Virus record (IMG/VR): IMGVR_UViG_3300025112_000047
Coordinates: 1-41,612 of that record
DNA length: 41,612 nucleotides
Direction: 5' to 3' (one strand)
DNA from: a virus
Part shown: positions 7,824-32,520 of the stretch, in pieces
Layout of the letters: every line of letters starts with the position of its first letter
Position numbering within the stretch: position 1 is the first letter of the stretch
The notes under the pieces: model-generated
Databases searched by the model: none
The model's input: only the letters and a program-made list of their open reading frames with translations
Told to the model about the DNA's origin: nothing
Position numbers and translations under genes: made by a program

Positions 7824-8732
7824 TTACGCGCCGGGCGAACCAAACACGCCACGGAAGTCGGTGACGCCGAAGGAATAACGCTCATAGCACTTGGCTTTAG
7901 CATTCTCCGTATCGAAATCATTGTCCTGCGTGAACTGTGCAGCAGTACGCTCGTAGCAGATCAAGCCGCGAGGTGCGTTGGTCCGAATAAACCAGGCATC
8001 GGTGTCGGTCAGGTAGTGGTTGACTTTAACCCCTTCAGGGATCGAGCCATCCGCGCGCAAGACGTTCACCGCGTTGTTCGCGGTATCGTTCTGAAGTGTC
8101 GAGTTCAGAATACGGCCGGCGTCAAACGAGAGAGCCGGGGGTACAATGAGACACTTAGGCATCAGACTGATTTTCAGACCACGGTCGTTTGTGGCGGTCA
8201 TAATCTGAATAACCAGATCTTCAACAGACGCCTCAGAAAGATCGGAGGCGGTAGCAAGCTTGTTAGACTGACTGCCCGACAGAGTCGGGTGATTGGTCGC
8301 TAACAGTTTAGTACCGTCGCCGAAAGTGTAGCTGCCGCTAAACCCGCGATTGTAGACTTGGGCAGCCACGGTCTCTTTGGTTTGACGCATTGAGAACGCA
8401 TTAGCAGCAGCGCGGCGCTTAGAGACAACCTCGTATTGGCTATCGTCCAGTTCTTCCTTAGTCACGATGTAACCAAGAGAGTAAGCGACGTGCGTATACC
8501 GAGACACATAACCTTGTGTCTCCGAATCGTACTGCACGGCGGCACCTTGCGCTTTAGCCGGCGCAAGACCAAACCCGGTCAGTTGGACGTCTTCTTCGTA
8601 CGCTTGCGTAGAAGTGTCCCGGTCGAACAGCATAGTATGCTCAACCTTGTGTTCGTCGTAGTTACGACCCCACCAGACCTTAACGCCAGGCCAGAGGGCT
8701 TTCGGGTGACTACCGGTTGTAATAACAGCCAT
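7824..8732 (-). CDS. Major capsid protein
   Basis: 302 residues, led by the very strong ribosome site AGGAGGGT. The protein has the HK97-type order seen in Mu gpT-like head proteins: an N-terminal region with 'VEHTMLFDRDTSTQAYEED', an E-loop-like stretch ('GYVSRYTHVAYSLGYIVTKE'), a spine helix ('RRAAANAFSMRQTKETVAAQ') and the C-terminal 'CYERYSFGVTDFRGVFGS'. It follows scaffold and decoration-like genes and precedes the tail-adaptor genes, where a capsid gene is expected. Bases 8050-8090, inside this gene, are exactly repeated at 28931-28971. Confidence 0.88.
   Translation of the reverse strand: MAVITTGSHPKALWPGVKVWWGRNYDEHKVEHTMLFDRDTSTQAYEEDVQLTGFGLAPAKAQGAAVQYDSETQGYVSRYTHVAYSLGYIVTKEELDDSQYEVVSKRRAAANAFSMRQTKETVAAQVYNRGFSGSYTFGDGTKLLATNHPTLSGSQSNKLATASDLSEASVEDLVIQIMTATNDRGLKISLMPKCLIVPPALSFDAGRILNSTLQNDTANNAVNVLRADGSIPEGVKVNHYLTDTDAWFIRTNAPRGLICYERTAAQFTQDNDFDTENAKAKCYERYSFGVTDFRGVFGSPGA
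8050..8090. repeat. 41-bp exact repeat, capsid copy
   Basis: Identical and same-orientation copy of 28931-28971. Here it lies inside the minus-strand capsid gene (coding near 'NDTANNAVNVLRADG'). It contains a 6-bp stem with a TTGTT loop (8068-8084). The match stops sharply at both ends. Confidence 0.97.
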
Positions 8733-9852: not shown

Positions 9853-10675
9853 CCCATTCGTACTCCTTCAAGTACTCATCTCGGGTACACATTTCGCGAG
9901 CGACCATGCGGTCGCATGCAGCCTTGGCGGCGCTGGGTAAACTAGCCCAGGTTTTTCCGCTTTTCTTTCTGGGGGGTGCGTTACCGCCCTCGACCTCGCC
10001 CGGCGCTCCGCGACGGGGATTCTCGAATTTCTCGGGGTAAGCACGTTTAACCTGCGTTTCTAAGGCTGCAAGTTGATCAGTTAAAGAGGATTGTGGCATA
10101 GATACACGTATAGATGCAAATGCTGCGTCGGTAAATGTTGTCATGCCGGGGTCGTTGGAGTACCACGTATGTTTTTCGGTAAACGCGGTAACCTCCGGGG
10201 GAATTTCATTTTCCGCCTGCTGCCGTTGAGCCGGCGGCGGCGGAACTTCTAAAGCTTCGATCTTCGACTGCGCGGTGTCGTAGGCATGAACATCGCCTAA
10301 TTCGACCGCCTGGCGCTGCTGCGCCTCTAATTCAGCTTTAGCTTCTTCGTAGCCGCGCTGGTGCGACCGGGCCATCATGCCTTTCATTTCAGCCATGTCG
10401 TTATTGATATTTTTCATGTCCTTGCCCTGCGCGACAAGCTGGGCGTCCTGACGCCGTAAGCGCTCGCGCAAAACAGGTAGCTCCGTCTCGCCACGTTCGA
10501 TGAACGTATCGGCGTCCACCCAACGGGACTCAGGTCCGTTGTATTCGTCAGCGGGGCGCCAGCCCATGCGGCGGGCGCGTTCTTCGAGTTCTGCGGGCTC
10601 GGGAGAAGTGTCCGCAGCTTCTTCCGGTGTTTTTTCTGCGGGCTCTTCCGCCACTTCTTCGTTAACTTCGCTCAT
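9845..10675 (-). CDS. Capsid scaffolding protein
   Basis: 276 residues. The N-terminus is highly acidic and Pro/Glu-rich ('EEVAEEPAEKTPEEAADTSP'). A long helical, coiled-coil-prone middle follows ('LPVLRERLRRQDAQLVAQGK', 'YEEAKAELEAQQRQAVEL'), and the tail has a basic patch ('GNAPPRKKSGKTW'). Acidic, helical and with a basic C-terminal capsid-binding segment is the classic scaffold layout. It lies after the portal and before the capsid, as in P22 (gp8). Scaffold directs procapsid assembly and then leaves the shell. Confidence 0.75.
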   Translation of the reverse strand: MSEVNEEVAEEPAEKTPEEAADTSPEPAELEERARRMGWRPADEYNGPESRWVDADTFIERGETELPVLRERLRRQDAQLVAQGKDMKNINNDMAEMKGMMARSHQRGYEEAKAELEAQQRQAVELGDVHAYDTAQSKIEALEVPPPPAQRQQAENEIPPEVTAFTEKHTWYSNDPGMTTFTDAAFASIRVSMPQSSLTDQLAALETQVKRAYPEKFENPRRGAPGEVEGGNAPPRKKSGKTWASLPSAAKAACDRMVAREMCTRDEYLKEYEWDD

Positions 10676-18571: not shown

Positions 18572-18811
18572 ATGGAAAACACACCCATCCACATCGACGA
18601 ATTACTGGACGGCGGCGAGGAAGCCGTGCGGCAGAATGTCATCTTTTCCCTCGGCAAACCGTCTAAGGGTAAGTGGCACGGGGGCCTGTACATCAAGTGG
18701 CGGAATAAGAAAAATCGGGCGATCAACGCATTCGGCGAAACTAAGAAATCCGTTGCCGATAGTCTTCTTATCCAAGCGCGCCGGGAAGCTGAGTGGAAAT
18801 ATAAACGGTGA
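18572..18811 (+). CDS. Small basic protein next to the Aca2-like gene
   Basis: 79 residues; GGAG precedes the ATG. The N-terminus is acidic ('HIDELLDGGEEAVRQNVIFS'). The rest is basic and aromatic ('KGKWHGGLYIKWRNKKNRAI'), ending 'ARREAEWKYKR'. No family was recognised. Its stop overlaps the GTG start of the regulator gene (GTGA), so the two are translated together. In known acr-aca loci the gene directly before aca is often the anti-CRISPR, so this is the best single candidate here. Confidence 0.6.
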   Translation: MENTPIHIDELLDGGEEAVRQNVIFSLGKPSKGKWHGGLYIKWRNKKNRAINAFGETKKSVADSLLIQARREAEWKYKR

Positions 18812-19131
18812 CCCCCGCCGAATTTAAAACCGTTCGCGAAAGCCTCAACTTGTCGGCGAAAGACGTGGCTGACAGGTTGGGGCTCAAGTCCGACCGCACC
18901 ATCCGGTTTTGGGAGTCTGGTGGGCGGGGCATACCGGATGACGCCGCCGAGTTGCTGATCGATATGGACACGGTCGTCGAGCACGCGATCCTGCACGCGG
19001 TCGAGGCCGTCGAAGAAACTATCGCCGAGATCGGGCAACCACCCGCAAAGCCTGTCACCATTTCTCGATATGTGAGCGACGAGCAATTCGCGCGGCTTGA
19101 CCCAGAAAGCTTTAGCCTGCGCCATACGTAA
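18808..19131 (+). CDS. HTH regulator resembling anti-CRISPR-associated Aca2 / YdiL family
   Basis: 107 residues, GTG start. Residues 1-50 form an HTH: 'MTPAEFKTVRESLNLSAKDV' then 'ADRLGLKSDRTIRFWESGGR' then 'GIPDDAAELLIDMD'. The layout (T-x-x-E-F/L near the start, R-x-x-L-x-L, W-E-S-G, x-P-D-D, then a helical dimerisation half) is that of the YdiL/DUF1870 group to which Aca2 belongs; Aca2 is about 115-125 residues. Aca proteins repress their own acr operon by binding inverted repeats in its promoter, and such repeats are present at 17388-17434. The similarity is judged by eye. Other HTH phage regulators share parts of this pattern. Confidence 0.7.
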   Translation: MTPAEFKTVRESLNLSAKDVADRLGLKSDRTIRFWESGGRGIPDDAAELLIDMDTVVEHAILHAVEAVEETIAEIGQPPAKPVTISRYVSDEQFARLDPESFSLRHT

Positions 19132-20118: not shown

Positions 20119-21033
20119 TTACGCGGCTTTTGCGGGGTTTTCGATAGCCTGATACTTGGTTCCCAAGATCAAGTCGGCCGCTTTTTGGGCGGCGCTGGCG
20201 GCTTTAAAAATCGCTTTTTTGTCTTCGCGCAACACTTTCAACCATGATCGCAAATATTCGGCGTGATCTGGGCGGGGCTCGCCTGATATTTGGCAAGCGC
20301 CGCAAGTCATGGCGGCCGATAGTTCAGCGATTAATTCCTCAAAGGCATAGGCATCGTCGCCGAACGTGGCGCCAAATTGGCGGTCTAACCGGCTTTTATG
20401 TCCTGTAGAATGCGCCATCTCATGCAATAAAACGGCGTAGTATCCTTCGGTCGTTTTGAATTGCTCGGCGGCTGGCATGGTCACTTGATCATTGCCGCGG
20501 TGATAATAAGCGCGGTTATTGTGGCCAGTCGTCAAGCTCGGACCCTTTTGCATGTAATCAGCAAGCAGGGCGTCAACGTGCTTTTGGGGAGTCACACCGT
20601 CCGGCAATTTGACCGGCTCGCGTGCAGAGTCGATAACATCCTGAACGGGCCCGGTCACTTTCTCGGCCGGGAAAACCGTGTGGAACTTGGGGAACATAAA
20701 AGGGCGGATAGTTGGGTCATCCGGCCGGACGGTCACCCATGCGACCACATTAGTGCCCCAAAGCCCGGCCGGCACATCGTCTGGGCGTTTTTTGACCGAG
20801 CACCCAACGGATTTCCAAGCTTTAAATGTGCCGTATACCTGGCTGGCGCTATCATCCGCGTAAAGCAGGGGTACATTGATGCCCCGATACCGCCGGCCGA
20901 TTGTGGAAACGGGTCCGCGCCCTCCGAAACGGTCTACCCAGGGCTTAGACCATCCTTTTTTGATGCTCTTTTCTAGCTGCAAAATGATTTTATTGGTGAC
21001 TGTTTGGTAAACGTCTTTTCTGTTTTTAGTCAT
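20119..21033 (-). CDS. ardC: ArdC-like anti-restriction protein
   Basis: 304 residues from the ATG at 21033, preceded by AAGGAAA; the frame is open to 21135 but upstream starts lack ribosome sites. The N-terminal half is the ArdC ssDNA-binding domain ('VYQTVTNKIILQLEKSIKKG', 'RRYRGINVPLLYAD', 'GTNVVAWVTV'). The C-terminal half is a zincin-type domain with 'HEMAHSTGH' at 204-212 (two His ligands and the catalytic Glu) and a downstream 'AFEELIAE' offering the third ligand. ArdC proteins protect incoming DNA from restriction. Terminators lie on both sides, so it is its own transcription unit, probably early. Confidence 0.88.
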   Translation of the reverse strand: MTKNRKDVYQTVTNKIILQLEKSIKKGWSKPWVDRFGGRGPVSTIGRRYRGINVPLLYADDSASQVYGTFKAWKSVGCSVKKRPDDVPAGLWGTNVVAWVTVRPDDPTIRPFMFPKFHTVFPAEKVTGPVQDVIDSAREPVKLPDGVTPQKHVDALLADYMQKGPSLTTGHNNRAYYHRGNDQVTMPAAEQFKTTEGYYAVLLHEMAHSTGHKSRLDRQFGATFGDDAYAFEELIAELSAAMTCGACQISGEPRPDHAEYLRSWLKVLREDKKAIFKAASAAQKAADLILGTKYQAIENPAKAA

Positions 21034-21064
21034 TCTTTGGTTTCCTTCGTTGTACATAGGTAGA

Positions 21065-21079
21065 AAGTAAACTATTACC
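21065..21079 (-). promoter_or_regulatory. Shared operator-like element before ardC
   Basis: GGTAATAGTTTACTT on the minus strand. Close relatives lie at 22544-22558 (GGTCAGTGTTTACTG, minus) and 23716-23730 (GGTAAATGTTTACTG, plus), each upstream of a minus-strand gene. Likely the binding site of one regulator. Confidence 0.5.
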
Positions 21080-21093
21080 ATGCACCTTGCAAG

Positions 21094-21123
21094 CAAAAAA
21101 ATACCCGGGCCGTGGGGCCCGGG
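21094..21123 (-). terminator. Intrinsic terminator upstream of ardC
   Basis: Perfect 8-bp GC stem (21104-21111 with 21116-21123), GTGG/CCAC loop, then a U-rich run on the minus-strand RNA (21094-21103). It ends the transcript of the 68-residue gene and those before it. Confidence 0.88.
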
Positions 21124-21147
21124 CAAGTTTATCAAGGGCGGCGGCCG

Positions 21148-23781: not shown

Positions 23782-26196
23782 TTACTCGACCGGCGCGATT
23801 AGTTTGCGGCGCATCTCGGCCAGGTCGGGCGCCGGCCGCAAGCTGCCCGCGCCCCCGCCTATCGAATCCACATATTCTTTTATATGCTTCACGCTAGTTG
23901 TCTCTCCCACCACATATCCCGAACTTTGGTGCTGGAGTACGTGTTCGCGTTCGCCGGCACCCCCGCCCCGGCGCACCCGTATGCGTAGCCCCCGCCGGCC
24001 TTCTGGCCCCATGGGGTCGCGATAGCCTATAGCCCTAAGCGCTGAAGTCACCCGCCGCGTGCCCGTCTGACTTACAAACGCCATAGGGTCTAAGCTTCTA
24101 ACGTCTGCAAGAACCATTTGCACGGTCACAAAATCGGGGAAGCCGCCAGTGTCGCCGGCCGCGTCTTCCATCCAGTTCCTGACCGCCACCTCGCTACCGT
24201 ACCGTGTTGTTTCGATCATTACGTTCTTAGCTTCTGTACTCGGCGCATATGTATTGTCAAACGCGCTAAGGTCGCGCGCGCAGCACCACTGGTACAAAGC
24301 CGCGATATTTGCCGGGTCCGCCGCCCATTCAGCCACTCCCTTATAGTACTCGCGCTCGCGCGGTGCGCCGCAATTGAGCACGACTATGCGCCGGTCATTA
24401 TCTGGAATTGGGATCGCGTCGACGTGATTAGTCGCCATCCAATAGGTCGCGCAAGTATGGACCTCAATGGGACGCCCATACTTGACCGCCATTATTTCTG
24501 TCCGCGGCCGGGGGTCAACAAGCTCTTTAAGCCTGTTATACACGTTATGCTGCTCTTTTTGGGTGGCCTCGCTGACAGACGGTAGTTCTTCGATGCAGTG
24601 TAATACCCGAGCGGCCCAGTCGCCTTTATACTGCGCCATGTTCGACCCCCCGAAAACCGCACCTTGTGGTAATAGCCCAGCGTTGCGCGCGCCCATGAGT
24701 TTTATAAGTATGTCGAATAGCACGCCTTTGCCCACGCCGCCCAATTCATCCACCAACAAGACGGCGGGGGTGGGCGTTTCAGGGTGCCGCGCTTTGTACG
24801 CCATGTTATCCATCGCCCACGCGCGGTCGTCGGCGTCGGGGAGCAGCCCCGCGATGAAGTCGTGGAAGACTGCGCAGCTGCCTTCCTCCGGCTGGTCATG
24901 CGCCGCGCGCTTAAAATAATTTTTAATAATTTTTCCGCGCTCATCTTCATATAGAGGGTACGCCTTATCTGGTCTGTAGCCCATGTGATCGACCTGGACC
25001 AAGTTTTCTGAGGCCGCCCAGAAATCCACCGGGCTGACGAGCGTTCCGGCCGTCGCCGGCCGGTCGCCGTCCGCCATGCGGCAAGCCCACCGGGTATTTT
25101 GTGTCTTGAAGCCGACCCAGGGAATTTGGCCGCTTTGAGGATTGTCGTTGTCGATCTCAATCGCTGTATGCGACGCGGCGTGATATGCGTACTGCGCCAG
25201 TAGCTCAGATGCCCTGTCCTGTACGGTTATGGTCATAGCGGGCGCTGGTACCCCGGCCTCGTCGCGCAGGGCTAGCATGGCGTCCTTGAGGCCCTCGGGG
25301 CCCTCAGGTGGCAGGGGCTTGAAACGCTCTTCGTGATAGCTTATGCCAGTCATGGTGTCGTGAATGCACACGCCGCCATGGTGATCGAGGCTCAGGAGCC
25401 CCCTATCAGTGTTTTTGGCCACGGGGCCGTCAAGCCAGGACATTGAAACACTAGCGTTTGGTATAGTCGTGTGCTCAGAGCGTAAGTCTTCCAGACAGCG
25501 GATAGCGTCCTCGTCACCTTTCCACGCAAACCGGTGCTCGTCGTTTAGCACGTACTCGCGAACTGCCATCGATTCGCCCGCGCCTTCGCGCGTCAATAAC
25601 TCGAAACCCTGCACGTCCAGCCAGCGCGTCGTGAAGTCCACAATCTCGAAAACCCGGGTTTTAGGGATCATAGGTAATTTGGCCAGCGGCACGTTTAATG
25701 GCGTATAATCAACCTCGCCTTCGACCCATCCATAATCCACGTTTTCCGAATGAGGTCCGAACGCCCCAAACTGGCGCGGCGAGCCCCCGCCGAAAACTTC
25801 AAGCATGGCACCTTTCTCTTCGTCCTCCCGGTCATGGTAGACCGGCGTGGCGATCCGATTGAAGAGCTCGTCGCAACGCAAAAACCACGCCTCTTTTTGG
25901 CCGCTACCCGTCCGCGCTACGGCCTGTTCTAGCTCGGGGAAAGCCTCCACAATCGCGTCGATCAAATCCACGGTACTGGCGTCGTCTATGTCGAGGTCGA
26001 ACGCAATCAGACCATCTTGAAGGCGTATGCCGGTAGTATGAGCCCCGTGCATGCGCTCCCACGACCGTATTTCGGCCTCATTTACCTCGACTTTTTGCCA
26101 GCCCGGTAAGTTAGGGCGCTTAAATGTGTTGGGAAGGGGCGTATAGCCGTTAGCGAGTAGTTGTAATCTTAAATCGGTTAGCGTAGAATCGGACAC
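23782..26196 (-). CDS. Primase-polymerase / SF3 helicase replication protein
   Basis: 804 residues from GTG at 26196, chosen because AGGAGG stands seven bases before it; the open frame reaches 26235 without such a site. The N-terminal AEP (PrimPol) domain has the metal-binding 'FDLDID' (Asp67, Asp69) and 'RQFGAFGPH' near 142. The C-terminal SF3 helicase has Walker A 'ELGGVGKG' (about 484-491), Walker B 'VLHCIEE' with Glu-Glu at 536-537, and the sensor 'ATNH' near 589. Known role: it synthesises primers and unwinds DNA at an iteron origin. The candidate origin lies about 0.8 kb downstream. Confidence 0.9.
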   Translation of the reverse strand: MSDSTLTDLRLQLLANGYTPLPNTFKRPNLPGWQKVEVNEAEIRSWERMHGAHTTGIRLQDGLIAFDLDIDDASTVDLIDAIVEAFPELEQAVARTGSGQKEAWFLRCDELFNRIATPVYHDREDEEKGAMLEVFGGGSPRQFGAFGPHSENVDYGWVEGEVDYTPLNVPLAKLPMIPKTRVFEIVDFTTRWLDVQGFELLTREGAGESMAVREYVLNDEHRFAWKGDEDAIRCLEDLRSEHTTIPNASVSMSWLDGPVAKNTDRGLLSLDHHGGVCIHDTMTGISYHEERFKPLPPEGPEGLKDAMLALRDEAGVPAPAMTITVQDRASELLAQYAYHAASHTAIEIDNDNPQSGQIPWVGFKTQNTRWACRMADGDRPATAGTLVSPVDFWAASENLVQVDHMGYRPDKAYPLYEDERGKIIKNYFKRAAHDQPEEGSCAVFHDFIAGLLPDADDRAWAMDNMAYKARHPETPTPAVLLVDELGGVGKGVLFDILIKLMGARNAGLLPQGAVFGGSNMAQYKGDWAARVLHCIEELPSVSEATQKEQHNVYNRLKELVDPRPRTEIMAVKYGRPIEVHTCATYWMATNHVDAIPIPDNDRRIVVLNCGAPREREYYKGVAEWAADPANIAALYQWCCARDLSAFDNTYAPSTEAKNVMIETTRYGSEVAVRNWMEDAAGDTGGFPDFVTVQMVLADVRSLDPMAFVSQTGTRRVTSALRAIGYRDPMGPEGRRGLRIRVRRGGGAGEREHVLQHQSSGYVVGETTSVKHIKEYVDSIGGGAGSLRPAPDLAEMRRKLIAPVE

Positions 26197-26238
26197 AGTG
26201 GTTCCTCCTGGGCTGCTATAGTACGGCTTACACACTCT

Positions 26239-26272: not shown

Positions 26273-26923
26273 TCATACTTGATTGCCGCCGTCTTCGATC
26301 TCGTCTGCGATCTCGGCCGCAATTTCGTCTGTTTCCGTCCCTGCATTTATATAAGTGCTGAGATCAAGCACATTTTTAGCCGCGGTCAACGTCTCTGTCG
26401 TAAAATCAGCAGCCGACAGCGGCATGCCCAGAGGCATTTCCAGTTGGTTGTCTTCAACCTCATAAGCCTCACGGTCGTCTGTGCCGATGCCACGGGCCTC
26501 GTAGGCCACTAAAATAGCCAAACAGCAAGCGGCATGCCACAGGTGGCTATGACCGCTCTCCATGTCGATGTCCTCGCCGCCTTGCCACGCCCATACGTGC
26601 CGTTGCAGCGCGGCAAAATAGATGCCCCACTCTACGCCCTCTTCCCAGCCGCGCTCGGCAAACTTTTTGGCGCCGTGAGCCATAACTGTGCCCATTGCCG
26701 TCATAATTTCGGGCGGTATGAGGTCCATGCGCGGCTTGTCTGGGTGGGCTTTGGCGTGTTTGTCCACTACGGCGTCTAGCTTGTCTTTTAACACACCGCC
26801 TTCATCGAGGTGCTTCTCACAGCACTGAAAACAATACCATCGTTTCCCTCCGACCATACACTCGTCGTTTATATTCGTGGTTTCTCCACAGCCAACGCAA
26901 TTAAATTGTCCAGATGCAGGCAT
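26273..26923 (-). CDS. MazZ-like dATP/dGTP diphosphohydrolase with N-terminal zinc motif
   Basis: 216 residues. Residues 9-34 hold two CxxC pairs ('CVGCG', 'CFQCC') forming a likely zinc knuckle. Residues 63-145 match the dATP/dGTP diphosphohydrolase (DUF5664) family: 'MAHGAKKFAERGWEEG' then 'ALQRHVWAWQGGEDIDMESG' then 'HSHLWHAACCLAIL', with Glu, Asp and His as metal ligands. Known members cut dGTP or dATP and in some phages feed 2-aminoadenine synthesis. PurZ, the partner needed for that, is absent here, so pool adjustment is more likely. Confidence 0.78.
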   Translation of the reverse strand: MPASGQFNCVGCGETTNINDECMVGGKRWYCFQCCEKHLDEGGVLKDKLDAVVDKHAKAHPDKPRMDLIPPEIMTAMGTVMAHGAKKFAERGWEEGVEWGIYFAALQRHVWAWQGGEDIDMESGHSHLWHAACCLAILVAYEARGIGTDDREAYEVEDNQLEMPLGMPLSAADFTTETLTAAKNVLDLSTYINAGTETDEIAAEIADEIEDGGNQV

Positions 26924-27364: not shown

Positions 27365-28330
27365 CTATACCGCCTTTGAGTAAAACCAGTTTTCAGTCGT
27401 TTCAGCCGCTAACGGCAGCCCTTCGGCCCAATCCGGCACGTATTCCATCTCAGCCGTTAACTCAGCTTTGACATTATCGGCGCGATCTTCGGGGCACTCC
27501 GCGATCAATTCATCGTGCGTATGCCCTACCAGATCGATCCACATATTATTGTTTTCGCACCGACGGATCGCGTCGCGCAGTAACGACGCCGCAGTGGCCT
27601 GCGTAACGTTCTCGGCCAGTATGCCGTGCCACATAGTTGTGCGAGTGTGACCTGACTGGTATCTCAATTTGTACTCAACCAGCTCGTCGCCATATTCGTC
27701 CTCGGTGACGACACGGTCGGTTTTTAGCGCGGGGTAGGTCAGAGCCCGCCCACAGGGCAGGAACATAAACATCGTACCAAACAAATATTTGGGCCGGTAT
27801 ACAAAGGTGACCCGCCCCGCTTTGAACTGTGAATTAGGTGACCGGCGGGCGTTTTGGAAAGCCTCGCCAAGCTGCGACCAAAAATTTGTCGCCCACTTAT
27901 TATTCTTGCGCCAGGTATCAACCACCCGGTTTGTTAGAGCCGCGTCGAGGCTCAAGCCATACGCGGCAGCCATCGAGGCCAGCGCGCCTACCCCGCCGCC
28001 GAAGCCCAAAGCCAGCTCGGCCACTTTACCTACTTGCCGCTCTTCTTTACTGACCTTAGCCGGGTCTACAGCATAAATGTCGCCAGCTGCGATTTCGTAC
28101 AGTCCCGGCAGATTGGGGTCGGCGTCACAGCTCTCAAATAGCTCTAGTCTGTGTTGCCCCGGCGTGCCCGCGAGCCACGGCAGAACCCGGGCCTCGATTG
28201 CGCTCCAGTCACTCCATACGAGCGTGTTGCCCGGGCCGGCGATCAGCATGGGGCGGATCAGCCGTGATAATGCGCGGGGAGCAGACCCGAATTTGGCCTC
28301 AAACTTGTCTATGACTAAAGCGTTAATCAA
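27365..28330 (-). CDS. DNA polymerase I (family A), C-terminal palm/fingers half
   Basis: 321 residues, TTG start at 28330 with GGAGGAG seven bases ahead. All three polymerase motifs are present: A 'WSDWSAIEARVLPWLAG' (Asp41), B 'ERQVGKVAELALGFGGG' (Arg98, Lys102) and C 'VGHTHDELIAE' (His272, Asp273, Glu274). The exonuclease, thumb and the 'GRFSS' segment are missing; they are in the gene at 31279-32520 on the other strand. Intact relatives are about 750-800 residues; the two halves add to 734. The start overlaps the VRR-NUC gene end, so the half is properly translated, not a fragment left by chance. Confidence 0.9.
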   Translation of the reverse strand: MINALVIDKFEAKFGSAPRALSRLIRPMLIAGPGNTLVWSDWSAIEARVLPWLAGTPGQHRLELFESCDADPNLPGLYEIAAGDIYAVDPAKVSKEERQVGKVAELALGFGGGVGALASMAAAYGLSLDAALTNRVVDTWRKNNKWATNFWSQLGEAFQNARRSPNSQFKAGRVTFVYRPKYLFGTMFMFLPCGRALTYPALKTDRVVTEDEYGDELVEYKLRYQSGHTRTTMWHGILAENVTQATAASLLRDAIRRCENNNMWIDLVGHTHDELIAECPEDRADNVKAELTAEMEYVPDWAEGLPLAAETTENWFYSKAV

Positions 28331-28640
28331 TGAATATCTCCTCCAAATGCTTGACCATATAGTTGATCCAGTTATCCACTGCTTCGATAGTCCACATGTG
28401 TTCGACCCTGTGCTGCAAATCTTGCAGCCTTATCGCTCTTAACTCCTGCGCGCGGCTGAGACGCCCGTGCATGGTTTTCAGCTCGACAAAATAAATCTCA
28501 CCTTGCGGCAGTATGACAAGCCGGTCGGGCCAACCGCGTCGGCCCTTAACCTCAAGCTTCAACGCTTCACCGCCGAGCTTTGTCTCGACCTGATCCACAA
28601 AATAAGCTTCGATTTGTTTTTCGAGTATTTTTTTCGCCAT
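28323..28640 (-). CDS. VRR-NUC domain nuclease
   Basis: 105 residues, the normal size of stand-alone phage VRR-NUC proteins. Seen: 'EKQIEAYFVDQVETKLGGEA' then 'KLEVKGRRGWPDRLVILPQG' then 'EIYFVELKTMHGRLS', giving the PD-(D/E)xK core: Glu near the start, Asp in 'PDR', and E-x-K in 'VELK'. The 'GWPDR' loop is the family signature. The family has Holliday-junction or flap nuclease activity. It is the first gene of the minus-strand replication unit, overlapping the polymerase C-half. Confidence 0.88.
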   Translation of the reverse strand: MAKKILEKQIEAYFVDQVETKLGGEALKLEVKGRRGWPDRLVILPQGEIYFVELKTMHGRLSRAQELRAIRLQDLQHRVEHMWTIEAVDNWINYMVKHLEEIFID

Positions 28641-28771
28641 GGAGCCTTCCTACAGTGAGCAAGTAAATCGCCATTTTTGTCTCTTCGTACATCCATGTAA
28701 TTTACCCTTGACTTGCGAAAAGCGTGGGCCCAAAATGAGCCCATCGCAACGAAAAGTCAACAGGTGATGTC
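28641..28771. other. Divergent promoter region between the replication units
   Basis: 131 bp between the VRR-NUC start (minus) and the first plus-strand gene. It carries the plus promoter at 28708-28736. A minus promoter is expected but none stands out. Confidence 0.6.
28708..28736 (+). promoter_or_regulatory. Promoter of the plus-strand replication operon
   Basis: TTGACT (28708-28713), 17-bp spacer, CAAAAT (28731-28736), 35 bases before the ATG at 28772. Confidence 0.6.
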
Positions 28772-28897
28772 ATGGCCCCCCGGCATTTCAAGCTAGCTTA
28801 CTTCATATGCGCGGCAGCATATGTAGCCATTGTTGGATTTTTAATAGGTATGTTTGTGACAGCGACCGTGCGTTGGCTAGACGAGTTGCTAATGTGA
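28772..28897 (+). CDS. 41-residue membrane protein
   Basis: The ATG at 28772 has AGGTGA ahead. Hydrophobic 'LAYFICAAAYVAIVGFLIGM' forms one membrane span; a short tail 'RWLDELLM' follows. The stop overlaps the next start (TGATG). Not recognised; a small early inner-membrane protein. Confidence 0.5.
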   Translation: MAPRHFKLAYFICAAAYVAIVGFLIGMFVTATVRWLDELLM

Positions 28898-29208
28898 TGG
28901 CAGTGGACCCCCGACGTTTAATTACTGCTTTCCGCGCGCAAGACGTTCACCGCGTTGTTCGCGGTATCGTTACTTCGGTGACACCGAGAGGATGGAACGA
29001 ATTGGAAAATAATCAGGCTATGCTAGCCTTAAAAGCACTATCTAGAGAAAAGCAACAGCCGTACAACGTATACAAGCGTCGTAAATATACCACCTCGGAA
29101 GAGGCACACCTGCGGCTGTCGGACGTGGCGAATGAACTTGGCATGACAATTTCGGAGGTCGTTGAGGCACTGATTTTGTCGGGCATACCGGAGGCGAACG
29201 AGAAATGA
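28897..29208 (+). CDS. Small protein containing the capsid-derived 41-bp repeat
   Basis: 103 residues from the ATG at 28897 (TGATG coupling). Residues 12-25 ('FRAQDVHRVVRGIV') are encoded by the 41-bp copy of capsid DNA, read in the opposite sense to the capsid gene. The C-terminal part 'LRLSDVANELGMTISEVVEA' is an HTH-like or helical segment and looks like the ancestral protein. Because 41 is not a multiple of three, the insert must have changed frame or given the gene a new front. Its last codons overlap the next gene (ATGA). Confidence 0.5.
   Translation: MAVDPRRLITAFRAQDVHRVVRGIVTSVTPRGWNELENNQAMLALKALSREKQQPYNVYKRRKYTTSEEAHLRLSDVANELGMTISEVVEALILSGIPEANEK
28931..28971. repeat. 41-bp exact repeat, early-operon copy
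   Basis: Identical, same orientation, to 8050-8090 inside the capsid gene. It contains an ACCGCG/CGCGGT hairpin with a TTGTT loop (28949-28965). RNA from the plus-strand operon is perfectly complementary to the capsid mRNA over this stretch. Confidence 0.97.
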
Positions 29209-30416
29209 ATGTTATGCCCCACTCCACGACAATCGGCGGATCGAGCGCCGCGCGCGTTCTCGCGTGCCCGGCCAGCATGAAGCTTTGCGCGAGCATGCCG
29301 AGGTCGCCCGACAGTGATTACAGCCGCGAGGGCACAGCTCTGCACTCCGCGGTCGAGTTTGCGCTACAAGACGGCCGCTTGCCGTTCACGAGCGACACGT
29401 CGTCCATGATTGGCCGCGTGTTTGACGGTATCACCTTGACCGCGGAGCACATTGACACTTGCATTGACCCCGCTCTCAGTATGTTCGATGAAGTCTACGA
29501 TGAATACGTCGAAAAGTCGGGCGAAGTGGAATTTGTGCTTGAGCAGAAGGTCAAGTTCCCCGGTATACCGAAAGCTTTCGGAACGGCCGACCTCACCCTA
29601 TCCGCTGAACACGGCGTGGCTATTCTAGATTGGAAGTTTGGACGCGGCGTAACCGTAAGCGCGCACGAGAGCGCGCAGGGAATGTTTTACGCGCTGGGCG
29701 CGGTGACGACGAAGACCGATGGCTTTCCCGATGACCAACCAGTCGAGATTATTATTGTACAGCCGCGTATTGCGGAAGAACCGTCCCGGTGGGTGACCAA
29801 CGGGGCGCGGCTCAAGCAGTTCCAGACCGATTTGATCGCCGCGTATGAAGAAGCGATTGGGGACAGCCCCAGCTACGCGCGCGGCGAACATTGCCGGTTC
29901 TGTACAGCCAAGCCGGTTTGCCCTCAATATAAAGACGTGGGGCAGAAGCTGAACGCGCTGGTTGCTAAAAAAGCGGACCCGGTGGTCGAGAATTTTACGC
30001 CTGAAGATTTGGCCGAATGGGCGCGGCAGGCAGACATCGTTGAGGCGTGGGCCAAAGCCGTGCGGCAGCTGATGATGCAAGAGGCCGAAGCAGGCCGACC
30101 GCCGACGGGAATGAAACTTGTGCAAAAGCAGGCAAATACTTCGTGGGTTAACGACGATCCTAAAGCTATTGATCGCATGCTGGCGCGCCTTGGCCTCGGG
30201 CTGGACGTGCGACGCCAGCCATGGAAAAACGCCAGCCCCACGCAGGCTAAAAAGGCACTTAAGAAGCTGGGTAAAGAGCTGCGCGATGGCGTAACACAGC
30301 GGCTGCCCGGTAAGCCGGTGCTGGTACCCGACGACGATCCCCGGCCGGCAATTGTGACGCACGAAGAGCGTGTCGAGAAGATCGGTGTGGCTTTGCACGA
30401 TTTGGAGCAAGATTAG
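29205..30416 (+). CDS. DUF2800-type Cas4/RecB-like PD-(D/E)xK nuclease
   Basis: 403 residues. Catalytic block: 'KAFGTADLTLSAEHGVAILD' followed by WK (Asp in 'TAD', D-W-K). C-terminal cysteine cluster 'CRFCTAKPVCPQY' (C-x2-C-x5-C), with an N-terminal Cys in 'LACPASMKLC' probably completing an iron-sulfur site, as in Cas4/AddB-type nucleases. 'REGTALHSAVEFAL' gives the conserved His. A role in replication-recombination is inferred from the family and from the following polymerase and helicase genes. Confidence 0.85.
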   Translation: MNVMPHSTTIGGSSAARVLACPASMKLCASMPRSPDSDYSREGTALHSAVEFALQDGRLPFTSDTSSMIGRVFDGITLTAEHIDTCIDPALSMFDEVYDEYVEKSGEVEFVLEQKVKFPGIPKAFGTADLTLSAEHGVAILDWKFGRGVTVSAHESAQGMFYALGAVTTKTDGFPDDQPVEIIIVQPRIAEEPSRWVTNGARLKQFQTDLIAAYEEAIGDSPSYARGEHCRFCTAKPVCPQYKDVGQKLNALVAKKADPVVENFTPEDLAEWARQADIVEAWAKAVRQLMMQEAEAGRPPTGMKLVQKQANTSWVNDDPKAIDRMLARLGLGLDVRRQPWKNASPTQAKKALKKLGKELRDGVTQRLPGKPVLVPDDDPRPAIVTHEERVEKIGVALHDLEQD

Positions 30417-30488
30417 CCCGGTTCCCGGGGCGGGCGTTATGAACCCCGGGGTTTTGAAACTAGCTAATGGCAAAAGGATATTAGCAAA

Positions 30489-31202
30489 ATGGCGAATGAA
30501 ATAGCTGAACAAGACGAAGCGCTTGCGAAACTGCAGGTTGCGGTGCGCAACACCAAGCGGTCCATGCCGAATGTGGGTGGACCGGTGCCTTATCTGAAAA
30601 TGGGTAAGGATGGTTTTTGGGTGTTTGGTGCCAAAAACGAAGAGGTACAAGACGGCTCACTTTGGGCCATCGACCCACTGTCTTACCGGTACGGCTTTGT
30701 GTGCTGGACGAACTACCCTAAAGAGGCTAAGCGTAAAAATGAGAACCTCGGTGTAATGACCGTGGCGCTCGATGAAGAAGCGTTGACGCTGGACGACATG
30801 CCTACCCGGACGGACAAAGACACCGGGAAGAATTGGCCGTGGGCCCCTGTGATCGAAATGCGTCTTAAGTGCGTATTTGGTGAAGACCAGGGTACTGAGG
30901 TCTTATGGCAGACGTCGTCTGTGGGTGGCACAAGGCTCGGTTCAGAGTACCTTGAGGAGTTAGACCGCAACATCGCCAAGGGCCTACCAGTGGCCGTGGT
31001 GAAGTTGGTGTCGGAGTCTTATGACCACACGCAGTATGGGAAGATTTACACCCCGACGTTTGTGTATGATCGGTGGTTGCCTTTAGGGACCACCAGTCTG
31101 GACGACGCTCCAGAAGAGATCGAAGCTCCTGTTGCTGACGAAGAGGTTAAAAAAGACGCCGCTCCCGCTCCCACACGGAAGCGTCGTCGCCCGGCGGCCT
31201 AG
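30489..31202 (+). CDS. Unknown replication-operon protein, possible ssDNA-binding protein
   Basis: 237 residues. The core is beta-rich and aromatic ('PVPYLKMGKDGFWVFGAKNE', 'PLSYRYGFVCWTNYPKEAKR', 'TYGKI'-like 'HTQYGKIYTPTFVYDRWLPL'). The tail is acidic, then basic ('APTRKRRRPAA'). It stands between the nuclease and polymerase genes, where many phages encode a ssDNA-binding protein; that is the only basis for the suggestion. A strong terminator follows, so its level may be set apart from the polymerase. Confidence 0.5.
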   Translation: MANEIAEQDEALAKLQVAVRNTKRSMPNVGGPVPYLKMGKDGFWVFGAKNEEVQDGSLWAIDPLSYRYGFVCWTNYPKEAKRKNENLGVMTVALDEEALTLDDMPTRTDKDTGKNWPWAPVIEMRLKCVFGEDQGTEVLWQTSSVGGTRLGSEYLEELDRNIAKGLPVAVVKLVSESYDHTQYGKIYTPTFVYDRWLPLGTTSLDDAPEEIEAPVADEEVKKDAAPAPTRKRRRPAA

Positions 31203-31222
31203 CCCTCGGTTCTCTTTGTCAC

Positions 31223-31266
31223 CCCCGGCGGCAGAATCCTCCCCGCCTGCCGCCGGGGTCTTTTTA
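31223..31266 (+). terminator. Intrinsic terminator before the polymerase N-half
   Basis: Perfect 12-bp GC-rich stem (31223-31234 with 31247-31258), 12-base loop, then TCTTTTT. It lies inside a co-directional operon, so only part of transcription should reach the polymerase and helicase genes. Confidence 0.9.
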
Positions 31267-31278
31267 AATAAGGAAAAC

Positions 31279-32520
31279 ATGACCGACCTCGTACAATCCA
31301 TCGACCAAATCTGCTTCATGGATAGCGAAACGCGCCGAGTCGCGGGCACGACTTGCCCTAACGTGATCAAGGCGGGCGGTCACCGTTATTTTGACAACTG
31401 TTTCGCTACCATCTGGTCTTGGGCCGTCGGCAACGCCCCCATCGAAATTGCGTCTTTACGTCACGGTTTCGATGGGCGGCTGTCGTGGGAGCACGACGCG
31501 CCAGACAGGCTTAAAAGATTTTACGAGCGCGCAGAGCGCGGCGAAGCTTACTTCGCCGCCTGGAATATGGCGTTCGACCGGGGCGTGTGGAACGGTCCAC
31601 AAAGCGATTTCCCGCCCCTTCGCATTGATATGACCATCGACGTCATGGCACAGGCCGTCGCGGCCGGTTGCCCGGCCACTTTGGCGGGCGCATCGACGTG
31701 GCTAAACGTGGCGCAGAAGATGGAGGAAGGTAAAAAGCTGATCGACCTTTACGAGCCCCCGGACGGTCTGCAGCCATCAGACCGGCCCTACGATTGGGAC
31801 AGGTTTGAAGACTACGCGATCCGTGATTCGGAAGCACTGCGCGATGTGTACAACGTGACGCTACCGCTATCTCGGGAAGAATGGGAGGTTTACTGGGCCA
31901 GCGAGGCGATCAACGACCGGGGCGTGGGGCTGGATACTTATGCCTGTGCGGCCGTGTCTGTACTCGTTGACGAAAACCTTGCGCGCATGAACGAACGGGT
32001 TATTGCTTTGACGGGCGGCAAGGTCACGGCGATCACGCAGCCCGCCCGGATTATTGACTTCGTGGCGCCCATTCTGCGCGATCACGCTTCTGTAAGGCAG
32101 TCTCTCGTCAAGCGGAAGGCTAAGTTAGGCGACGACGGTACGATAATTCGACCAGAGAAGCTGTCTCTGAGCCGTGACAGGCTGGAAATAGTGCTTGTGT
32201 ACCTCGATGTCTTACAAGAGCGCGAGGGGTTGTCTGACGAGCTACAGCGCGTACACGAGCTGCTGACCTTACGTCATTATGGCGGGTCGGCTACGCCGGG
32301 TAAATTCTTGAAAGCCCTGAACGTATCGCACGGTGGGCGGCTCAAGGGACAGTATGTGTTCAACGGCGCGCCGCAGACCGGCCGGTTTAGCAGTCGCGGC
32401 GTTCAGATCCATAACCTAACCCGGGCTCACTTGGCCGAGCTGGAAGATGCAGCACTTAACGTCATATCCGCCTTGAAGGACAAACGGGTTCGCGCGCGGG
32501 TCAGAGAGATGGGGTACTGA
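31279..32520 (+). CDS. DNA polymerase I (family A), N-terminal exonuclease/thumb half
   Basis: 413 residues from the ATG at 31279 with AAGGA ahead; the open frame extends to 31132 but crosses the terminator. A DEDDy 3'-5' exonuclease is visible: 'FMDSETRR' (Asp15, Glu17), 'AAWNMAFD' (Asp100) and 'YAIRDSEAL' (Tyr179, Asp183). The thumb region 'LTLRHYGGSATPGKFLKAL' and the front of the polymerase fold 'FNGAPQTGRFSSRGVQIHNL' follow. Then the gene ends with 'ARVREMGY' and a stop. Motifs A, B and C are absent here and are in 27365-28330 on the minus strand. The two proteins are expected to associate. Confidence 0.88.
   Translation: MTDLVQSIDQICFMDSETRRVAGTTCPNVIKAGGHRYFDNCFATIWSWAVGNAPIEIASLRHGFDGRLSWEHDAPDRLKRFYERAERGEAYFAAWNMAFDRGVWNGPQSDFPPLRIDMTIDVMAQAVAAGCPATLAGASTWLNVAQKMEEGKKLIDLYEPPDGLQPSDRPYDWDRFEDYAIRDSEALRDVYNVTLPLSREEWEVYWASEAINDRGVGLDTYACAAVSVLVDENLARMNERVIALTGGKVTAITQPARIIDFVAPILRDHASVRQSLVKRKAKLGDDGTIIRPEKLSLSRDRLEIVLVYLDVLQEREGLSDELQRVHELLTLRHYGGSATPGKFLKALNVSHGGRLKGQYVFNGAPQTGRFSSRGVQIHNLTRAHLAELEDAALNVISALKDKRVRARVREMGY

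What the first reader, a model, noticed from the sequence alone, without database searches (positions are those of the whole stretch)
27365..32520. Family A DNA polymerase split into two genes on opposite strands
Seen: 31279-32520 (plus) encodes the DEDDy exonuclease, thumb and 'GRFSS' region and then stops; 27365-28330 (minus) encodes motifs A, B and C and nothing before. Together they cover one full enzyme of normal length with no overlap. Each half has its own start and good ribosome site, so both seem functional. No intein motifs are seen at the break. Inference: a rearrangement moved the C-half with VRR-NUC to the other strand, and the enzyme now assembles from two proteins whose levels are set by two promoters. 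The break lies between the 'NLxR' and 'LxRxxL' segments just before motif A.
Basis: partly seen in the sequence, partly recalled or inferred. Interest (0 to 1): 0.87.

Follow-up and report, generated by a model that had tools for sequence, protein, structure and literature searches.

The report
Phage DNA polymerase in two genes
This complete phage genome makes its only recognisable replicative DNA polymerase from two genes on opposite strands; distant relatives share the same cut and layout, so it looks like a stable two-part enzyme created by an old gene split followed by an inversion, not an assembly mistake.

Summary
31279-32520(+) encodes the DEDDy exonuclease, thumb and TGRxSS part (413 aa). 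27365-28330(-) encodes motifs A, B and C (321 aa). Together (734 aa) they match an intact relative (748 aa, Nostoc phage Nsp-JY18). The genome is complete (165-bp terminal repeat) and has no other family A or B polymerase hit. All catalytic residues are kept; no intein or intron lies at the break.

Relatives change the history. At least nine other IMG/VR contigs carry a stand-alone half ending or starting at the same site. In some the halves are on one strand: L012 overlaps stop and start as ATGA, L003 and L004 are near-adjacent, L019 is 3 kb apart. In L010 and L028 they lie on opposite strands, with the window's layout; L009 and L014 fit it. By signed gene order the window differs from an L019-like order by one inversion of the divergent block [VRR-NUC, exonuclease, SSB-like, PolN], with a breakpoint between N and C. 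So fission came first, inversion second, and the state is old and conserved.

Most likely the halves assemble without splicing into one active enzyme, as shown for split gp43 of phage 25. Split family A polymerases are known (MEP401), but at a different site and on one strand. A new variant of a known kind.

The parts
31279..32520 (+). PolN: DEDDy 3'-5' exonuclease, thumb and first palm segment of a family A DNA polymerase (413 aa)
   Evidence: phrog_17 positions 696-988; AlphaFold2 pLDDT 92.1, best PDB fold match vibriophage phiVC8 DpoZ 7pbk; exonuclease residues conserved in split and intact relatives
27365..28330 (-). PolC: motifs A, B and C, i.e. fingers and catalytic palm of the same enzyme (321 aa, TTG start overlapping the VRR-NUC stop)
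   Evidence: PF00476 and phrog_17 positions 991-1230; AlphaFold2 pLDDT 92.6, best PDB fold matches bacterial DNA polymerase I
28323..28640 (-). VRR-NUC nuclease gene directly upstream of PolC; near one end of the inverted block
   Evidence: PF08774 E 8.4e-4 (below its gathering cut-off), phrog_93 endonuclease E 8e-19; upstream of PolC or of intact Pol in L010, L014, L028, L008, L022
28641..29204 (.). region between the two arms; holds a short + strand ORF 28807-29208 that matches an ORF at the same place in L028
29205..30416 (+). DUF2800 / PD-(D/E)XK exonuclease, an early gene of the + arm
   Evidence: PF10926 E 6.7e-60, PF12705 E 1.1e-8
30489..31202 (+). SSB-like protein (my label; weak phrog_9528 match), directly upstream of PolN
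   Evidence: conserved position in L003, L010, L012, L019, L028, L088
32527..33930 (+). SNF2-type helicase, directly downstream of PolN
   Evidence: PF00176, phrog_62; same position in the L028 and L010 genomes
26273..26923 (-). dATP/dGTP pyrophosphohydrolase downstream of PolC
   Evidence: PF18909 E 2.2e-29; directly downstream of PolC in L028 and L009 too
23782..26235 (-). primase-helicase (DUF5906, phrog_1156), same strand as PolC

Best explanation
It is a two-subunit family A replicative DNA polymerase of a short-genome tailed phage lineage. PolN (exonuclease, thumb, first palm strands) and PolC (fingers and catalytic palm) are made as separate proteins from two divergent early operons and fold together without splicing into one enzyme. 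The history had two steps. First, an intact gene was cut in the helical linker between the TGRxSS...HNL segment and the LIRP strand before motif A, leaving adjacent genes as in L012 (ATGA overlap). Later the block [VRR-NUC, exonuclease, SSB-like, PolN] inverted, with one breakpoint in the gap between the two genes. That put PolN upstream of the helicase on one strand and left PolC with the primase on the other. Shown: sequence, fold of each half, catalytic residues, shared break site, layouts, purifying selection on a split PolC. Inferred: association of the halves, activity, and the order of events.
For: Halves abut in one profile and add up to normal length. Every split relative breaks at the same place: PolN ends roughly 20-35 residues after HNL, PolC starts roughly 15-30 residues before LIRP. 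Same-strand splits: L003, L004, L012 (ATGA at 10001-10004), L019. Opposite-strand splits: window, L010, L028. Signed order of L019: -HEL -VRR +EXO +SSB +N +DCM +C +PRIM; mirrored window and L028: -HEL -N -SSB -EXO +VRR +C +dNTPase +PRIM. Apart from gene gains and losses this is one inversion. PolC and PolN trees agree that window + L028 are sisters (100/99 in the PolN tree; with L009 99/98 in the PolC tree) and that L012 + L016 are sisters (100/99). All catalytic residues are invariant in the split rows that cover them. A split PolC pair (L009/L028, 89% identical) has dN/dS 0.14 by NG86. Both halves fold at pLDDT about 92 and both match DNA polymerase I structures. No Rfam intron. No other PolA or PolB hit in a complete genome. 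Precedent: split gp43A/gp43B of Aeromonas phage 25 co-purify and have polymerase activity (PMC2988022).
Against: No experiment and no complex prediction were possible, so association is inferred. The order fission-then-inversion rests on a few contigs, and the trees leave the deeper forks weak; at least two split/intact changes are needed, so re-fusion in L016 or repeated fission cannot be told apart. The primase-helicase may carry a primase-polymerase domain (seen in the N-terminal sequence, not tested), so the phage might not depend wholly on this PolA.
Confidence: 0.78

Rival explanations
1. The two parts work separately: PolN as a stand-alone proofreading exonuclease and PolC as a minimal polymerase or a remnant, with the host enzyme replicating the phage.
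For: Each half is predicted to fold with confidence alone. Stand-alone C-halves may exist elsewhere: phrog_10285 is a family of 321 positions.
Against: PolN keeps the thumb and the TGRxSS segment, which serve the polymerase and not the exonuclease; PolC has no thumb. The ends that flank the break are among the lowest-confidence parts of both models, as expected of surfaces that need the partner. Wherever the contig is long enough, both halves are present; contigs with one half end nearby.
Confidence: 0.12
2. Assembly error: the inversion, or the split itself, was made by the assembler.
For: Single metagenome record. The second contig with the same junction has no real base difference in the shared stretch, so it may come from the same site or sample.
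Against: L010 and L028, with PolC only 50-53% identical to the window's, have the same break and the same divergent layout; L009 and L014 fit it. The break site is shared by at least nine other contigs.
Confidence: 0.02
3. The two products are joined after transcription or translation (trans-splicing intron or split intein).
For: Inteins occur in PolC of L003 and L028, so splicing elements visit this gene.
Against: Those inteins sit far downstream, before ENVTQ, inside an intact PolC frame. No intein-like ends at the PolN C-terminus or the PolC N-terminus in any split relative. No intron family in Rfam at gathering threshold. PolC has its own start with a ribosome site.
Confidence: 0.03
4. The split genes are decaying and non-functional.
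For: None found beyond the split itself.
Against: No stops or frameshifts, all catalytic residues kept in the split rows, dN/dS 0.14 for a split PolC pair, persistence across lineages with about 40-50% identity.
Confidence: 0.03

Closest known systems
Split family A polymerase of Methylophilales phages MEP401/MEP402 (Zobellviridae; PMC10580990)
   Same: A DNA polymerase A gene in two genes, exonuclease part first, polymerase part second; seen in most of their group I genomes
   Different: Both on one strand with one small ORF between; break directly at motif A (...FLSRYGE / MILNADAKALEW...), roughly 20 residues later than here; its authors thought an intron possible
Split family B polymerase gp43A/gp43B of Aeromonas phages 25 and 44RR (PMC2988022)
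   Same: A phage replicase in two polypeptides without a splicing element; the halves of phage 25 co-purify and are active
   Different: Family B, a different polymerase family; gene pair interrupted by a homing endonuclease gene or an untranslated sequence
Intact polymerases of Nostoc phage Nsp-JY18 and Microcystis phage Mel-JY33, and IMG/VR L016, L022
   Same: Closest intact family A relatives, same neighbourhood genes (VRR-NUC, DUF2800 exonuclease, SSB-like, helicase, primase)
   Different: One gene of about 745-780 aa; L008 and L022 differ from L016 in the orientation of the VRR-EXO-SSB block and the place of the primase
Split DNA polymerase III alpha of group 2.2 jumbo phages (PMC7824862)
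   Same: Catalytic polymerase split into distantly located genes
   Different: Family C, very large genomes

Membership tests
Family A DNA polymerase (PF00476), as the sum of two proteins | Motif A Asp, motif B Arg/Lys/aromatic, motif C His-Asp-Glu | tested here: met
   All present in PolC and invariant in 10 split rows; PF00476 above cut-off
Family A DNA polymerase (PF00476), as the sum of two proteins | DEDDy 3'-5' exonuclease (optional in the family) | tested here: met
   DxE, NxxxD and YxxxD present in PolN and in all split rows that cover them
Family A DNA polymerase (PF00476), as the sum of two proteins | Right-hand fold of DNA polymerase I | tested here: met
   Both halves match DNA polymerase I structures; the complex itself was not modelled
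Family A DNA polymerase (PF00476), as the sum of two proteins | Template-directed DNA synthesis | not testable with these tools
   needs protein
Split-intein polymerase (as cyanobacterial DnaE; from general knowledge) | Intein N- and C-fragments at the break | tested here: not met
   No such ends in any split relative
Intron-split polymerase gene | Group I or II intron between the exons on one strand | tested here: not met
   Opposite strands; no Rfam intron in the window or in six relatives
MEP401-type split | Same break position | tested here: not met
   Break differs by roughly 20 residues by comparison of the sequences around motif A

The most novel reading that the evidence does not exclude
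An obligate two-subunit family A replicase whose subunits are expressed from opposite divergent arms, so that each arm's timing or dose limits replication. The split freed a recurrent inversion of the shared divergent block to change which downstream genes go with which arm (helicase with PolN, primase with PolC).
Probability: 0.25. Interest if true: 0.68.

Novelty: new variant of a known kind. Interest (0 to 1): 0.52.

Why it matters
Family A polymerases are among the best studied enzymes. A natural cut just before motif A that has lasted in several lineages marks a permissive site in the palm and gives ready-made two-part polymerases. The relatives give a series of intact, touching (ATGA), spaced and inverted states, so gene fission followed by operon inversion can be followed step by step.

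Tried and rejected
Single-sequence peptide scan with PolC found only the second copy of this virus; the alignment profile was needed. The N-half profile had no sequence match in the PDB, so fold comparison was used. Intron and intein at the break rejected. Recombination repeats at the inversion ends: only short imperfect inverted repeats, none convincing. Promoter and terminator scans at chance level. Stand-alone C-halves among deposited phages: seven records checked by annotated gene length were all intact, so the members behind phrog_10285 were not identified. Plasmid search gave nothing close. Literature searches for a split family A phage polymerase found MEP401 only.

Full report
Observation. 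Two ORFs at the stated places encode complementary parts of one family A DNA polymerase. In PHROG profile phrog_17 the N part covers positions 696-988 and the C part 991-1230, so they abut. Their sum, 734 aa, equals the 748 aa of the intact polymerase of Nostoc phage Nsp-JY18 to within 2%. Exonuclease and polymerase catalytic residues are complete. AlphaFold2 models of each half (pLDDT 92.1 and 92.6) match DNA polymerase I structures, PolN best to vibriophage phiVC8 DpoZ and PolC best to bacterial DNA polymerase I. PolC begins at a TTG that overlaps the VRR-NUC stop, behind GGAGGA; PolN begins at an ATG behind AAGGA.

Completeness. The window's first and last 165 bases agree except for one base, and another IMG/VR contig runs across the join, so this is a whole circular or circularly permuted genome of about 41.4 kb. 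PF00476 hits only PolC, and PF00136 hits nothing. No second family A or B polymerase was found. The primase-helicase could carry a primase-polymerase domain; that was not tested.

Relatives. Profiles of both halves were run over IMG/VR and mapped in whole records. Stand-alone halves with the same break occur in L003, L004, L009, L010, L012, L013, L014, L019, L028 and L088. Both halves are seen in L003, L004, L010, L012, L019 and L028; in the others a contig end lies on the side where the partner would be expected. In L012 the stop of N and the start of C overlap as ATGA. In L004 a metallophosphoesterase gene lies between the halves; in L019 a methylase gene and 3 kb; in L003 about 290 bp. In L010 and L028 the halves are on opposite strands, with the window's gene order on each arm.

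Inversion. Signed order of L019: -HEL -VRR +EXO +SSB +N +DCM +C +PRIM. Mirrored window and L028: -HEL -N -SSB -EXO +VRR +C +dNTPase +PRIM. Reversing the block [VRR EXO SSB N] turns one into the other, apart from the methylase and dNTPase genes. The intact relatives show the same kind of flip without N: L016 is -PRIM -HEL -VRR +EXO +SSB +POL, while L008 and L022 are -HEL -SSB -EXO +VRR +POL +PRIM. So the divergent block appears to flip repeatedly in these phages, and in the window's lineage the breakpoint fell between the already separate halves. No clear recombination repeat was found at the ends. This is inference from gene order.

Trees. PolC and PolN trees agree where they are well supported: window with L028 (and L009), and L012 (split) with L016 (intact). 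Starred branches force at least two changes between split and intact, so either the gene was cut more than once at the same place or it was re-fused. The opposite-strand layout also appears on two branches (window/L028 and L010).

Function. A PolC pair from the inverted clade (L009, L028) has dN 0.07 and dS 0.50 by NG86, ratio 0.14: purifying selection on a split gene. YN00 gives a still lower ratio with a saturated dS. The break joins two predicted helical stretches of lower model confidence, as expected of a surface that packs on the partner. There is no intein or intron at the break. The simplest reading is non-covalent assembly, as shown by others for gp43A/gp43B of Aeromonas phage 25 (PMC2988022). 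Control by two promoters is plausible from the layout but was not shown.

Known or new. MEP401-type phages carry a published split family A polymerase (PMC10580990), but on one strand and cut right at motif A. Seven deposited relatives that I opened have an intact gene, besides Nsp-JY18 and ctNMl277. PHROG phrog_10285, 321 positions long, suggests other stand-alone C-halves, not followed. The finding is a new variant: a different break, conserved in several lineages, with the two subunits in opposite divergent operons.

Noticed in passing
L028:5531-7366 and L003:3024-4976: PolC carries an intein just before ENVTQ(A/G)T. Inside each intein an intact HNH/AP2-like endonuclease ORF (L028:6438-7097, L003:4030-4698) lies in another reading frame on the same strand, so the intein frame reads through the endonuclease gene out of frame in two distant genomes.
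   Followed up: partly
window 8050-8090 and 28931-28971: Exact 41-bp direct repeat between a structural gene on the minus strand (7824-8732, probably the major capsid protein) and the region between the two replication arms.
   Followed up: partly
window 18808-19131: Small helix-turn-helix protein with a weak Aca2/YdiL-like match (just under cut-off); Aca proteins often neighbour anti-CRISPR genes.
   Followed up: no
window 20119-21135: ArdC-like antirestriction protein (ArdcN plus MPTase-PolyVal domains).
   Followed up: no
L004:7189-7257 (-): Hammerhead ribozyme type II above Rfam's gathering score in a phage with the split polymerase.
   Followed up: no
L015:6984-9255: Polymerase gene broken by a frame change inside the exonuclease/thumb part, a different place from the split studied here; error or second kind of split.
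   Followed up: no
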